Shown here piece by piece: positions 27,298-64,000 of a stretch of DNA of 64,000 nucleotides. Each line of letters begins with the position of its first letter. The first letter of the stretch is position 1. Origin of the DNA: Caldanaerobacter subterraneus (GTDB lineage Bacteria; Bacillota; Thermoanaerobacteria; Thermoanaerobacterales; Thermoanaerobacteraceae); assembly GCF_004345675.1 (NCBI RefSeq), contig NZ_SLWU01000012.1, positions 1 to 64,000 of the forward strand, given 5' to 3'. Both the position numbers and the translations under genes were made by a program. The notes beneath the pieces were generated by a model. That model was given only the letters and a program-made list of their open reading frames with translations. It was not told where the DNA came from and did no database searches.

Positions 27298-27590
27298 CTG
27301 CCTCTATGCAGCCTATCAGACTGTTGACAAAATAAAAAAGTGGCATTTTGTGTGTAAATGCGACTTGTTGCCAAAGCGGTAACTAAACTTAGCGAGCTTA
27401 AGGAGCGAAGGCGGGGCGAGCAAAGCGAGCGGCCATCTGAGCCTGAAAGGCGAATTGGCCGGGACACCGCCTGAGCCCTTAAGCGAGCTTTAGTTTAGTC
27501 GCTTTGCAACTCTGGAGCATTAACACAAAATGCCACTTAAATAAGGGGAACTTTGTCAACAAGCCAATAAGCTGCCTTTATGCAGCCTAT
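27298..27590 (-). mobile_element. Terminator-targeting palindromic element, copy 1
   Basis: The element body is about 27317-27567. It is the reverse orientation of the copies at 40.7 and 61.0 kb and about 85-90% alike by eye. Ends are CAGACTGTTGACAAAA on the left and CTTTGTCAACAA on the right. It is flanked by two copies of a terminator hairpin, CTGCCTYTATGCAGCCTAT (27298-27316 and 27572-27590, one mismatch). Its GC-rich centre and long self-complementary arms contrast with the AT-rich surroundings. It contains no credible gene. Confidence 0.85.
27572..27590 (-). terminator. Terminator hairpin at the end of the GH31 gene (repeat-side copy)
   Basis: GCTGC and GCAGC pair around CTTTAT, directly after and overlapping the GH31 stop codon. 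It is the right-hand copy of the hairpin duplicated by the element. The original terminator probably served both gatD and the GH31 gene. Confidence 0.6.
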
Positions 27591-39998: not shown

Positions 39999-40698
39999 AA
40001 TGCTAGTACAAGGAGCGAGTAGTTTAGGGATTACTTTGGAAATGTTCCATGTGGAACATTTCCAAAAATTTTATTCTCTTTTATTGGAATGGAATCAAAA
40101 GATGAATTTAACGGCAATTACTGAGGAAGAGGAAGTTGTGATAAAGCATTTTTTGGACAGCCTTTCTGTTATAAAAAGCGGCAAAATAAAAGGGGGAGAA
40201 AAAGTTATAGATATAGGAACAGGGGCTGGATTTCCAGGGATTCCTTTAAAAATAGTTTTTCCTGAAATTGGACTTACTCTTCTTGAAGCATCCAAAAAGA
40301 AAGTAAATTTTTTAAATTTCCTTTCTCAAGTTCTTCTTTTTGAGGGTATTGAAGTAATACACGGAAGAGCAGAAGAACTGGGAAAAGTTGAAAGGTTTAG
40401 AGAAAAATTTGATATTGCTACTGCAAGAGCCGTGGCTCCTCTCAATATTTTACTGGAATATGCTGTTCCTTTTGTGAGGGTGGGAGGACATTTTATTGCG
40501 ATGAAGGGAAGAGATATAGAAGAAGTATATCAGTGCAAGAATGCTTTAGAAGAGCTTAAATGCGAGATTGAAGATGTGATTGAAGTGAGGCTTCCTTTTA
40601 GTGATATTCTTCACCATTTGATTGTAGTGAAAAAGGTTGATGTCCTGCCTTCAAAGTATCCTCGAAGGGAAAAAGCCATAAGGACAAAACCTTTGTAA
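39979..40698 (+). CDS. rsmG: 16S rRNA (guanine-N7) methyltransferase RsmG
   Basis: SAM-dependent methylation of G527 in 16S rRNA, where loss gives low-level streptomycin resistance in other bacteria. The 239-aa Rossmann-fold protein has [20 protein letters not shown] and the catalytic-side [12 protein letters not shown] segment. It overlaps mnmG by 20 bp. A parS-like palindrome lies within the coding sequence around codons 22-27. A mobile repeat is inserted in its terminator 28 bp after the stop. Confidence 0.95.
40035..40066. promoter_or_regulatory. parS-like centromere site 1 (within rsmG)
   Basis: TGTTCCATGTGGAACA (40043-40058) lies in a longer dyad spanning 40035-40066: 15-bp perfect arms around TG. 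It differs from the canonical TGTTTCACGTGAAACA at three positions, two of them compensatory. It lies 3.3 kb upstream of parB. Confidence 0.8.
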
Positions 40699-40702
40699 TA
40701 TA

Positions 40703-40999
40703 GGCGCTTACCTTTTGTGGGCGCTCAGTTTGTTGACAAAGTCTTTCTTATTTAAGTGGCATTTTGTGTTAATGCTCCAGAGTTGCAAAGCGACTAAACT
40801 AAGGCTCACTTTTCGGGCTCAGGCGGGGTACCGGCCAATTCGCCTTTCAGGCTCAGGTGGCCGCTCGCTTTGCTCGCCCCGCCTTCGCTCCTCAAGTTCG
40901 CCAAGTTTAGTTACCGCTTTGACAACAAGTCGCATTTACACACAAAATGCCACTTCTTTATTTTGTCAACAGTCTGGGCGCTTACCTTTTGTGGGCGCT
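40703..40999 (+). mobile_element. Terminator-targeting palindromic element, copy 2
   Basis: The element body is 40726-40976 (251 bp). Ends are CAGTTTGTTGACAAAG and TTTTGTCAACAGTCTG, imperfect inverted repeats. Both sides carry an identical 23-bp copy of the rsmG terminator hairpin (40703-40725 and 40977-40999); only the right copy is followed by TTTTT. Arms such as AAGTGGCATTTTGTG pair with their complement at the other end. The centre is GC-rich (GGCGGGG pairs with CCCCGCC). No gene is supported inside. Confidence 0.9.
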
Positions 41000-42438: not shown

Positions 42439-42454
42439 TGTTCCATGTGGAACA
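42439..42454. promoter_or_regulatory. parS-like centromere site 2, overlapping the parA promoter
   Basis: TGTTCCATGTGGAACA, identical to the core of the site in rsmG. Its right half forms part of the -35 hexamer of the parA promoter, so binding may also repress parAB. Confidence 0.8.
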
Positions 42455-60945: not shown

Positions 60946-61248
60946 AAAAGCTCTCCATTTTCTGGAGAGCTTCAGTTTGTTGACAAAGTCTTTCTTAATC
61001 TAAGTGGCATTTTGTGTTAATGCTCCGGAGTTGCAAAGCGACTAAACTAAAGCTCACTTGAGGGCTCAGGCGGGGTACCGGCCAATTCGCCCTTTGGGCT
61101 CAGGTGGCCGCTCGCTTCGCTCGCCCCGCCTTCGCTCCTCAAGTTCGCCAAGTTTAGTTATCGCTTTGGCAACAAGTCGCATTTACACACAAAATGCCAC
61201 TTTTCTATTTTGTCAACAGTCAAAAGCTCTCCATTTTCTGGAGAGCTT
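60946..61248 (+). mobile_element. Terminator-targeting palindromic element, copy 3
   Basis: The element body is 60973-61221 (249 bp), same orientation as copy 2 and about 90% alike. Ends are CAGTTTGTTGACAAAG and TTTTGTCAACAGTC. A strong terminator hairpin of 27 bp is present identically on each side (60946-60972 and 61222-61248); only the right copy continues into TTTGTTTT. Internal hairpin GCC-TTTCA-GGC of copy 2 is GCCC-TTT-GGGC here, a paired change that keeps the stem. No gene is supported. Confidence 0.9.
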
Positions 61249-61352: not shown

Positions 61353-62318
61353 TTATTCATGACTTTTTATTATAAGCATATTGTTTTCCTTAGAAATTTC
61401 CAAATTATAAAACTTCCTGCAGGACTCCATAATCGTCTTTATAAGTTTTTCCTGACCAGTTATTTCGAGTAAATGTATGGATTTAGATAAAGAGTCTTTG
61501 TATTCTTCTCTGCCAAGATTGTACTCTGCAATTGCTTTTCTAAAATACAGAAGTCCCAGACCACTTAAGATATTATTTTTTACACAGGTTTCTATTCCAA
61601 GATTTGCATAATGTAAAGATTCTTCAGCAAGAGAAAGAATGTGATAAGTATATGATATATTGTAATACAACCTTATTCTCGTTTCCCATTCTTCAGAAGA
61701 AAGATTATGTAAGCAGAATAAGAGGACTTCAAGGCTTTTTTCTGCACCTTCTATTTTTCTGAGGAGCAAAGCCATGTTCATTAGAATTCGAATTTCCATG
61801 TCACTGTAAACAAAATCCGCATAATTAGAAAGAGAGAAATTTGGGATAGTGATTTCCATCGCTTTTTGAAGCTTTTCCATAGCTTTTTCATAATTTTCAT
61901 TGATTGTTTTTTCAAAGACAGACTCAGCAGTTAGTAAAAGTTGATTTAATAACTTAGAGTAATATAGGCTCATATCACCTTTTTCAAGCAATTTCTTTAA
62001 CCTATCAATATCATCTCTCAAACTTTCAAAATCTCCGCTTTCAAGTTTCTTTTCGAGAGAGGATTTTATGTCAAAGAAAGTAGAATAATCTTTTAATCTG
62101 TATTTTAGGAGCAATTCATTTAAATCTTTTTTATAGAGATGGGACAAAAGATCTAAAGTTTCCTGTTTGGGTATGACTTTACCGTTTTCAATTTTTCTAA
62201 GTGTATCCCTGCTGATGAAAGCTTGTTCAGCAACATCGCTTTGGGAAAGTCCCAGAGATTTGCGAATATTTTTAAGTTCTTCACCAAATGCTTCTAAATC
62301 ATAATAGAAACCATCCAT
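61353..62318 (-). CDS. XRE-type HTH / TPR-repeat regulator, RRNPP-like peptide receptor
   Basis: The 321-aa cytoplasmic protein has an N-terminal XRE helix-turn-helix (about 11-65; LKNIRKSLGLSQSDVAEQAF, SRDTLRKIENGKVIPKQETL). A long array of antiparallel helices follows (about 85-315), with TPR-like repeats such as AEESLHYANLGIETCVKNN. That is the plan of RRNPP receptors (PlcR, Rgg, ComR and others), which bind re-imported signal peptides in the TPR groove. The start ATG 62318 follows GAGG by 9 nt. It is divergent from a small secreted-peptide gene 101 bp away, with a palindrome between them, as expected for an autoregulated receptor-pheromone pair. The ligand is an inference. Confidence 0.85.
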   Translation of the reverse strand: MDGFYYDLEAFGEELKNIRKSLGLSQSDVAEQAFISRDTLRKIENGKVIPKQETLDLLSHLYKKDLNELLLKYRLKDYSTFFDIKSSLEKKLESGDFESLRDDIDRLKKLLEKGDMSLYYSKLLNQLLLTAESVFEKTINENYEKAMEKLQKAMEITIPNFSLSNYADFVYSDMEIRILMNMALLLRKIEGAEKSLEVLLFCLHNLSSEEWETRIRLYYNISYTYHILSLAEESLHYANLGIETCVKNNILSGLGLLYFRKAIAEYNLGREEYKDSLSKSIHLLEITGQEKLIKTIMESCRKFYNLEISKENNMLIIKSHE

Positions 62319-62333
62319 TTTTTAACACCTCAT

Positions 62334-62349
62334 GCCGATTCAAATCGGC
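62334..62349. promoter_or_regulatory. Operator palindrome A (regulator / peptide 1)
   Basis: GCCGATT-CA-AATCGGC, perfect 7-bp arms. It lies directly before TTGAAA (62350-62355), 17 nt, TATTAT (62373-62378), the probable promoter of peptide 1. It is the likely binding site of the XRE regulator. Confidence 0.75.
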
Positions 62350-62378
62350 TTGAAAATATCCTGGTTATTATCTATTAT
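62350..62378 (+). promoter_or_regulatory. Promoter of peptide gene 1
   Basis: TTGAAA, 17-nt spacer, TATTAT, followed by ATAGTTAA, a motif shared with the second peptide promoter. Confidence 0.65.
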
Positions 62379-62419
62379 ATAGTTAAAAGGAGAAAATGTA
62401 AAGGGCAGGTGAAGATGGA

Positions 62420-62569
62420 ATGAATAAGAAACTAATAATTATGTTCTTTGTTGTAAACATTTTATTTACATCTTGCTTTTTTAGTCCATTAGGAGAAGGG
62501 AAAGTAGTTCCACTGTGGGAAGAAGATGCAATAGAACTACATTCCTATAATTCCATTGAGATGAAGTAA
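62420..62569 (+). CDS. Small secreted peptide, putative pheromone precursor 1 (49 aa)
   Basis: AGGTG lies 8 nt before the ATG. The product has a lysine start (MNKKLIIMFFVVNILFTSCF) with a hydrophobic core typical of a signal segment, possibly a lipobox-like TSC. A polar tail follows containing GKVVPLWEEDAIELHSYNS. This matches the design of Phr/PapR-type signal precursors: export, trimming, re-import by an oligopeptide permease, binding to the receptor. The mature peptide is unknown; the tail shares a P-x-W-x-E-E-like element (PLWEED) with PWGEEN of peptide 2. I know of no named family. Confidence 0.65.
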   Translation: MNKKLIIMFFVVNILFTSCFFSPLGEGKVVPLWEEDAIELHSYNSIEMK

Positions 62570-62862
62570 TGAATGAATCAATTTAAAGTATATCAAACGC
62601 CGAGACGTCTCCTTTTGTCCGATTCAAATATTATGCACTTTTCTTGAAAGCACAATCTTTATGCCTATTACCAATCTCTTTTTACTGATAAAATACCAAT
62701 CTTCCATCCTTGTCTAGCGAATAAGTCCACCTGTTCGACTTTTGGGGTTGTGAATAAGATGCTGCTTACTCATATTGCAACACTCCAAACCTTCTTAACA
62801 AAGACGGTTTCATTCCTCCAGGTGTCTACTTTATAGAAACCATTCATTTTTTAACATTTCAT
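62570..62862. other. Non-coding stretch with remnant of a second regulator start
   Basis: No gene is supported over about 290 bp. On the minus strand 62831-62848 reads ATGAATGGTTTCTAT, matching the first five codons of the XRE regulator (ATGGATGGTTTCTAT at 62304-62318), and then diverges completely. Upstream of that start the two loci agree through the palindrome. Further in, the minus strand has a short open stretch beginning MSKQHLIHNPKSRTGGLIR with no recognisable family, possibly debris of an insertion. Confidence 0.6.
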
Positions 62863-62878
62863 GCCGATTCAAATCGGC
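62863..62878. promoter_or_regulatory. Operator palindrome B (peptide 2)
   Basis: Identical GCCGATT-CA-AATCGGC to operator A, followed at the same distance by TTGAAC (62879-62884), 17 nt and TATTAT (62902-62907). Confidence 0.75.
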
Positions 62879-62907
62879 TTGAACTTTTTTGTTTTGCCAT
62901 ATATTAT
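62879..62907 (+). promoter_or_regulatory. Promoter of peptide gene 2
   Basis: TTGAAC, 17-nt spacer, TATTAT, then ATAGTTAA as at peptide 1. Confidence 0.65.
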
Positions 62908-62943
62908 ATAGTTAAGGGAAAGATATGTAAAGGGAAAATATAA

Positions 62944-63078
62944 ATGAAAAAGAAATCAATGAATATTTTCCTAGTATTTGTTATTTCAATATCTTTACTA
63001 TATTTGAGCTCAGATGCAATTAAACCATGGGGGGAAGAAAATTTAATAAGATGGTATTTTGTAATGCTTGGAAGGTGA
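62944..63078 (+). CDS. Small secreted peptide, putative pheromone precursor 2 (44 aa)
   Basis: Second small precursor, paralogous in layout to peptide 1. It has a basic start and hydrophobic segment (MKKKSMNIFLVFVISISLLY), then LSSDAIKPWGEENLIRWYFV and a short end. The ribosome site is weak (AAAGGG about 10 nt upstream). Promoter, operator and spacing are the same as for peptide 1, but it lacks an adjacent intact regulator. It may signal to the same receptor or be an orphan of a lost pair. Confidence 0.6.
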   Translation: MKKKSMNIFLVFVISISLLYLSSDAIKPWGEENLIRWYFVMLGR

Positions 63079-63750: not shown

Positions 63751-64000
63751 GTGAAAAAAAGTCGAACTTTAATCTTAGTTAGTTTAAGCATCTTTTTGAT
63801 TTTTATTTTAAGTATAGGTGCCTTTTCATTTTCAGCAAAAAATCCTCAGGAAAAGGCCAACGAATTACAATTTGATAATATTATGAAAAAAGTATCTTCT
63901 TTTTTCAAAAGCAACAAAGATAAGTTAGAAATTAATAAAGGGGATGTAATTGCAGAAGTTAATGGAATACCAATATACAAGAATGAATTTGAATTGAGGA
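63751..64000 (+). CDS. SurA/PrsA-like foldase or lipoprotein, N-terminal part (runs off window)
   Basis: GTG 63751 follows AAGGAGG. The 83 visible codons give a signal/anchor segment (residues about 5-28), a charged linker, and the segment DVIAEVNGIPIYKNEFELR. That is the typical beginning of SurA-N/PpiC peptidyl-prolyl isomerase-type extracytoplasmic foldases (VNGxxIyxxEf). The gene is cut by the window end, so no isomerase domain can be confirmed. It is 19 bp from the secreted protein gene, so it is likely co-transcribed and may assist its folding. Confidence 0.75.
   Translation, partial: MKKSRTLILVSLSIFLIFILSIGAFSFSAKNPQEKANELQFDNIMKKVSSFFKSNKDKLEINKGDVIAEVNGIPIYKNEFELR

What the first reader, a model, noticed from the sequence alone, without database searches (positions are those of the whole stretch)
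61353..63078. Putative new RRNPP quorum-sensing locus: TPR regulator, two secreted mini-peptides, two identical operators
An XRE/TPR regulator is divergent from a 49-aa secreted peptide. A second 44-aa secreted peptide lies 375 bp on. Both peptide genes have GCCGATT-CA-AATCGGC immediately upstream of a -35 box, a 17-nt spacer, TATTAT and ATAGTTAA. Peptide tails share PLWEED/PWGEEN-like elements. Operator centres lie near -43, fitting activation. The small ORFs are below usual annotation limits, so the system would easily be missed. RRNPP systems are well known in Bacillus, streptococci and some clostridia; I do not know one described for this group.
Basis: partly seen in the sequence, partly recalled or inferred. 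Interest (0 to 1): 0.88.

Follow-up and report, generated by a model that had tools for sequence, protein, structure and literature searches.

The report
Thermoanaerobacter peptide quorum-sensing cassette
The window holds what looks like a cell-to-cell signalling switch (a PlcR-like receptor-regulator facing a small secreted signal peptide, with a shared DNA site) of a well-known kind, here as a family confined to the heat-loving genus Thermoanaerobacter, repeatedly duplicated and recombined next to genes for secreted, bacteriocin-like and modified-peptide products.

Summary
In detail: regulator 61353-62318(-), two exact copies of GCCGATTCAAATCGGC (the only near matches in the 2.58-Mb genome), each directly before TTGAAN-N17-TATTAT, then a 49-aa and a 44-aa ORF. 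The regulator is an RRNPP protein by two tests: its profile aligns end to end with PlcR (E 1.4e-6), and its model's best PDB match is PlcR-PapR-DNA (Z 22.4). Related cassettes occur in 9 of 10 Thermoanaerobacter genomes and in none of 27 other genomes of the class. The first peptide is conserved beside its regulator (6 of 7 class-A loci), under purifying selection, with core P[LMW][GW]E[EK][DN]xI. The second peptide is probably not a second working pheromone: its unit is a decayed cassette, and the orthologous unit has lost the peptide but kept operator and secreted-protein gene. Operator, regulator helix and peptide vary together in about four classes, with mosaics. Cargo includes lactococcin-972-type export and radical-SAM/SPASM maturase genes. 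Best reading: pheromone-activated, self-amplifying control of secreted effectors, as PlcR/PapR works. A new subfamily of a known kind; no published description was found in the searched library. Pheromone activity, binding and activation are inferred.

The parts
61353..62318 (-). PlcR-like RRNPP regulator: N-terminal HTH (about residues 8-74) plus helical TPR-type sensor (about 78-304), 321 aa
   Evidence: Pfam HTH_3 4e-13, RNPP_C 3.7e-4 below cut-off; PlcR profile match; AF2 model pLDDT 85.9 and PDB matches
62334..62349 (.). Operator 1, GCCGATTCAAATCGGC (class A)
   Evidence: palindrome position conserved, with class variants, in 20 aligned copies
62350..62378 (+). Peptide-1 promoter TTGAAA-N17-TATTAT, predicted start about 62385
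62374..62402 (-). Predicted regulator promoter TTTACA-N17-TATAAT, predicted start about 62367, interleaved with the peptide promoter
   Evidence: core bases conserved in all copies
62420..62569 (+). Candidate pheromone precursor 1, 49 aa, hydrophobic N-terminus, core VPLWEEDAI
62833..62847 (-). Remnant of the start of a second, lost regulator (reads ATG AAT GGT TTC TA on the - strand)
   Evidence: homology block with regulator starts begins at 62833
62863..62878 (.). Operator 2, identical to operator 1
62879..62907 (+). Second-unit promoter TTGAAC-N17-TATTAT, predicted start about 62914
62944..63078 (+). Peptide 2, 44 aa, class-B-like (KPWGEENLIRWYF), probably decaying or diverged
   Evidence: orthologue truncated in L043
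63207..63731 (+). Secreted-protein cargo, 174 aa with signal-type N-terminus, no known family
63751..64000 (+). SurA-like foldase/lipoprotein-type cargo gene (238 aa, runs past the window to contig position 64467)
   Evidence: PF13624 36.8 bits against cut-off 27.2

Best explanation
This is a chromosomal RRNPP (PlcR-like) peptide quorum-sensing cassette with local targets. The 49-aa precursor is secreted by the Sec route, trimmed outside to a short peptide containing the P[LW][GW]EED core, and re-imported by an oligopeptide permease. Inside, it binds the TPR groove of the regulator, whose HTH then holds the palindrome next to the -35 box and recruits polymerase. This raises the precursor (positive feedback) and, at the second copy of the site, the secreted-protein genes from 63207 on. 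The same bound site lies just inside the regulator's own predicted transcript, so binding probably also limits the regulator. Shown: architecture, family by sequence profile and fold model, conservation, purifying selection on the peptide, conserved site and promoter sequences. Inferred: secretion, trimming, import, binding, activation, and that the second unit's job is the cargo.
For: Profile matches PlcR over 9-299 against 4-282, E 1.4e-6. Best PDB folds are PlcR-PapR7-DNA, then PlcR, Rgg2, ComR, PrgX; VIA Z 22.4 over 273 residues. A paralogue in the same genome passes the RNPP_C cut-off (26.6 against 26.5 bits). Invariant N220 aligns with PlcR N201, a peptide-contacting residue (own knowledge, not found in a held paper). 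10/10 congeners have promoter copies, 9/10 the regulator. 15 intact peptides share N-terminal charge, hydrophobic stretch and core. Class-A peptide pN/pS 0.39, lowest pN in N-terminus and core. Operator class follows HTH residue 37 in intact regulators: R in class A, I in B and D, T in C. Eight oligopeptide-binding proteins in the genome. Cargo is secreted or antimicrobial-like.
Against: No transcription, binding or peptide data. SignalP was not available; class-A peptides have a lipobox-like FTSC, so the export route is unsure. The window protein itself is under the RNPP_C cut-off. Five of the 12 regulators that are full length or nearly so have no intact peptide beside them, and many copies are fragments. 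The -35/-10 match is good without help, so repression relieved by peptide is also possible.
Confidence: 0.72

Rival explanations
1. RRNPP pair working as a repressor: the apo-regulator sits on the palindrome and blocks polymerase at the adjacent -35; imported peptide releases it, as with PrgX or Rgg3.
For: Operator abuts the -35 box and the promoter hexamers are strong without an activator; Rgg and PrgX folds are also matched.
Against: Closest relative by profile and fold is PlcR, an activator; a centre at -43.5 is a usual activator position (established knowledge).
Confidence: 0.18
2. The small secreted peptides are the product (bacteriocin-like or RiPP precursor) and the regulator senses something else.
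For: Radical-SAM/SPASM and ABC-exporter genes follow class-C peptides; the peptides are secreted-type with a conserved core.
Against: The same core stands with unrelated cargo, often with no modifying enzyme, and in register with the regulator's operator; the regulator is of the pheromone-receptor fold.
Confidence: 0.08
3. Two working pheromones, one regulator, as the first reader proposed (a variant of the best explanation, scored on its own).
For: Both have identical operators and a related core; peptide 2 is an intact ORF.
Against: The unit is a remnant duplication; the ribosome site is weaker than in class-B peptides (AAATATAAATG against GAGAGGAAATG); motif residues changed; peptide lost but operator and cargo kept in L043.
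Confidence: 0.2
4. Ordinary XRE regulator beside chance small ORFs.
For: Small ORFs and 7-2-7 palindromes are common by chance.
Against: Conservation of ORF, site and spacing across species, with purifying selection.
Confidence: 0.02

Closest known systems
PlcR-PapR of the Bacillus cereus group
   Same: HTH plus TPR-type fold over full length; small secreted peptide gene beside the regulator; 16-bp palindrome ahead of a sigma-A -35; regulon rich in secreted proteins, 49% (PMC2464732)
   Different: About 18-20% identity; operator GCCGATTCAAATCGGC, not the PlcR box wTATGnAwwwwTnCATAw; peptide divergent from the regulator and overlapping its promoter; pheromone core PLWEED-like, not ADLPFEF; two close sites in the genome, not tens
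Rgg/SHP systems driving RaS-RiPPs in streptococci (PMC8092268, PMC13361665)
   Same: RRNPP regulator beside a small peptide, controlling radical-SAM peptide clusters
   Different: Regulator here is closest to PlcR; the operator and peptide differ; cargo in the window is a secreted protein plus a SurA-like protein, radical-SAM genes stand with other copies
Clostridial RRNPP systems of C. acetobutylicum and C. saccharoperbutylacetonicum (QssR; PMC7376267, PMC7206700)
   Same: RRNPP in Clostridia in the broad sense
   Different: QssR is placed in the nine-TPR clan B (PMC12700828); the window protein is of the shorter, PlcR-clan size and fold

Membership tests
RRNPP receptor-propeptide systems (criteria of PMC10075063) | Receptor 250-500 aa with N-terminal HTH | tested here: met
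   321 aa; HTH_3 E 4e-13
RRNPP receptor-propeptide systems | C-terminal TPR-type sensor of the RRNPP fold | tested here: met
   PlcR top in fold comparison and the only full-length profile match; RNPP_C for this protein below cut-off, paralogue above
RRNPP receptor-propeptide systems | Propeptide gene of 10-100 aa within -60 to 400 bp | tested here: met
   49 aa, 101 bp, conserved across species
RRNPP receptor-propeptide systems | Secretion signal on the propeptide | tested here: inconclusive
   2-3 positive residues then a hydrophobic stretch in all 15; SignalP not available
RRNPP receptor-propeptide systems | Ribosome-binding site before the propeptide | tested here: met
   AGGTGA 7 nt before the ATG of peptide 1, read by eye; weaker for peptide 2
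RRNPP receptor-propeptide systems | Import by an oligopeptide permease | tested here: inconclusive
   8 SBP_bac_5 proteins present; link to this peptide unknown
RRNPP receptor-propeptide systems | Peptide binds receptor and changes transcription | not testable with these tools
   needs experiment
PlcR subfamily proper | PlcR box wTATGnAwwwwTnCATAw as operator | tested here: not met
   the conserved site is GCCGATTCAAATCGGC or its class variants
PlcR subfamily proper | PlcR-like overall fold | tested here: met
   Z 22.4, rmsd 5.8, 273 residues, 20% identity

The most novel reading that the evidence does not exclude
A genus-wide, recombining pherotype system: regulator HTH plus operator, sensor domain and peptide form exchangeable modules (about four operator/peptide classes), shuffled by gene conversion in front of changing secreted or RiPP cargo, so that new signal-receptor-operator combinations arise naturally. 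In one metagenome-derived genome (G007) a class-B HTH, operator and peptide go with a sensor identical over about 700 nt to that genome's class-A sensor.
Probability: 0.35. Interest if true: 0.7.

Novelty: new member of a known kind. Interest (0 to 1): 0.55.

Why it matters
If right, it gives Thermoanaerobacter, a genus of thermophilic anaerobes, a candidate peptide quorum-sensing system with a defined candidate signal, operator and receptor that could be tested with a synthetic peptide. The natural operator, helix and peptide variants give a ready set for studying how specificity changes, and the system marks unannotated bacteriocin- or RiPP-like clusters.

Tried and rejected
Phage or plasmid origin: no relative in IMG/VR by the pattern scan; plasmid hits only to the HTH part. 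A wide class-A regulon: no further site with up to 2 mismatches in the genome. PepF as a regulon member: one of two pepF genes has a close operator in G001 and G002, cassette-like remnants in G004 and G008 and a degenerate one in the window genome, but no operator in the five others, so left as a lead. Fold of the secreted 174-aa cargo: model pLDDT 40.8, unusable. The role of PlcR Asn201 could not be sourced from held papers. Literature: no held paper joins RRNPP with Thermoanaerobacter; the two that join PlcR with the genus name it once each and were not opened. Supplementary tables of RRNPP_detector could not be read, so detection there is not excluded.

Full report
What is there. The regulator (61353-62318, minus strand), the two small ORFs and the two identical palindromes are as described. 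GCCGATTCAAATCGGC occurs twice in the 2.58-Mb genome and nowhere else within two mismatches. Of 11 perfect 7-2-7 palindromes in the window only these two precede a promoter. Each is followed directly by TTGAAN-N17-TATTAT, with the operator centre at -43.5 from the predicted start. On the other strand lies a second conserved promoter, TTTACA-N17-TATAAT, which fits the regulator's own; its predicted start at 62367 puts the operator at about +25 of the regulator transcript. The bases of both promoters are among the most conserved in 19 copies.

What the regulator is. Pfam gives HTH_3 clearly and RNPP_C below its cut-off. A profile from nine congeneric regulators matches PlcR over nearly its whole length, E 1.4e-6. 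The AlphaFold2 model (pLDDT 85.9) has PlcR bound to PapR7 and DNA as its best PDB match, then Rgg2, ComR and, lower, PrgX; VIA-align gives Z 22.4 over 273 residues. A partial paralogue on contig C26 passes the RNPP_C cut-off by 0.1 bit. Invariant N220 aligns with PlcR N201. I take RRNPP identity as established by homology; PlcR is the closest solved relative, at about 20% identity, with a different operator.

Distribution. Regulator relatives at E <= 1e-12 occur in 9 of 10 genomes of the genus and in none of 27 others of the class. Named records are Thermoanaerobacter, including T. thermocopriae. A sequence profile of operator plus promoter finds 57 places in the ten genomes at E <= 0.01; the weakest are doubtful.

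The peptide. Beside class-A regulators the peptide is intact in 6 of 7 loci; over all 12 regulators that are full length or nearly so, in 7 (two of those seven regulators carry an internal stop or a small deletion). Fifteen intact peptides share two or three N-terminal positive residues, a hydrophobic stretch and the core P[LMW][GW]E[EKV][DN]xI, 18-21 residues from the C-terminus. Class-A pN/pS is 0.39; windows with lowest pN are the N-terminus and the core, highest the linker and the tail end. Pairwise counts are not independent, so this shows direction, not a test value.

The second unit. The block from 62833 still reads as the first bases of a regulator gene (ATG AAT GGT TTC TA on the minus strand), then operator and promoter. 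Its peptide resembles class-B peptides (PLGEEDLIRWHS) but reads PWGEENLIRWYF, and its ribosome site is weaker than theirs. Its promoter spacer is class-B-like while its operator is class A. In G005 the orthologous unit (L043) keeps operator and promoter, has a truncated, frame-broken peptide, and has the same secreted protein and SurA-like gene (97.5% over 1277 nt) directly behind. So the unit's lasting function is more likely to drive the cargo (63207 on) than to make a second signal.

Classes and mosaics. Four operator types occur: GCCGATTCAAATCGGC (A), CCCGATTCAAATCGGG (B), CCAGAATCAATTCGGG (C), GCAGATTCAAATCGGC (D). In intact regulators residue 37, in the predicted recognition helix, is R in A, I in B and D, T in C. 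The sample is small and follows the tree except for the B regulator, which falls inside A on whole-protein data because its sensor part is identical over about 700 nt to the A sensor of the same genome while its HTH, operator and peptide stay B-type. That is what linked HTH and operator would give, but the genome is metagenome-derived and a mis-assembly is not excluded. In G003 the peptide's signal sequence is fused to a longer secreted-type protein, 245 aa in all. The window genome also carries a class-C peptide and promoter at the end of contig C24 and a matching partial regulator at the end of C26, probably one locus broken by the assembly.

Cargo. Behind the window unit: a 174-aa secreted-type protein of no known family and a SurA-N-domain protein, a pair found in five other genomes, partly broken in some. 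Elsewhere: an ABC ATPase close to the lactococcin-972 export family (244 bits, cut-off 255), radical-SAM/SPASM maturases, ABC exporters and S41 peptidases. None of these shows that the cassette controls antimicrobial production; it fits the pattern.

Mechanism. By analogy with PlcR-PapR: secretion, trimming, re-import, binding in the TPR groove, activation from the site next to -35, with feedback on the peptide and a likely limit on the regulator. Activation against repression is not settled.

Known or new. RRNPP systems are a known kind. I found no description for this genus: no held paper has both RRNPP and Thermoanaerobacter, and the main text of the large RRNPP survey does not name it; its supplements could not be read. 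I file this as a new subfamily-level member of RRNPP, not as PlcR itself, since the operator differs.

Noticed in passing
window 60972-61222; also 40725-40974 and 27319-27562: A roughly 250-bp element with inverted ends (TTTGTTGACAAA-like, inner 16-bp exact arms) between flanking terminator-like GCTCTCC hairpins; 12 near-complete copies plus partial matches in the genome. Looks like a MITE.
   Followed up: partly
L095, L097, L101, L104 upstream of pepF: One of two oligoendopeptidase F genes has an operator-like palindrome close upstream in G001 and G002 and cassette remnants in G004 and G008. PepF overproduction is known to degrade a Phr pheromone in B. subtilis (cited in PMC7055314), so a signal-degrading target is possible.
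   Followed up: partly
L033:10114-11455 and L091:6876-8201: A radical-SAM/SPASM maturase gene is split into two ORFs in L033 but is one ORF in L091 of the same genome.
   Followed up: no
L033:11819-16157: Three tandem S41-type peptidase genes of about 460-475 aa beyond the window; one was checked against Pfam.
   Followed up: no
window 40043-40058 and 42439-42454: A second repeated perfect palindrome, TGTTCCATGTGGAACA, twice in the window.
   Followed up: no
L048:7816-8724 against L047:8927-9889: Two regulators of one genome are identical over about 700 nt of the sensor and differ in HTH, operator and peptide: recent gene conversion or assembly error.
   Followed up: partly
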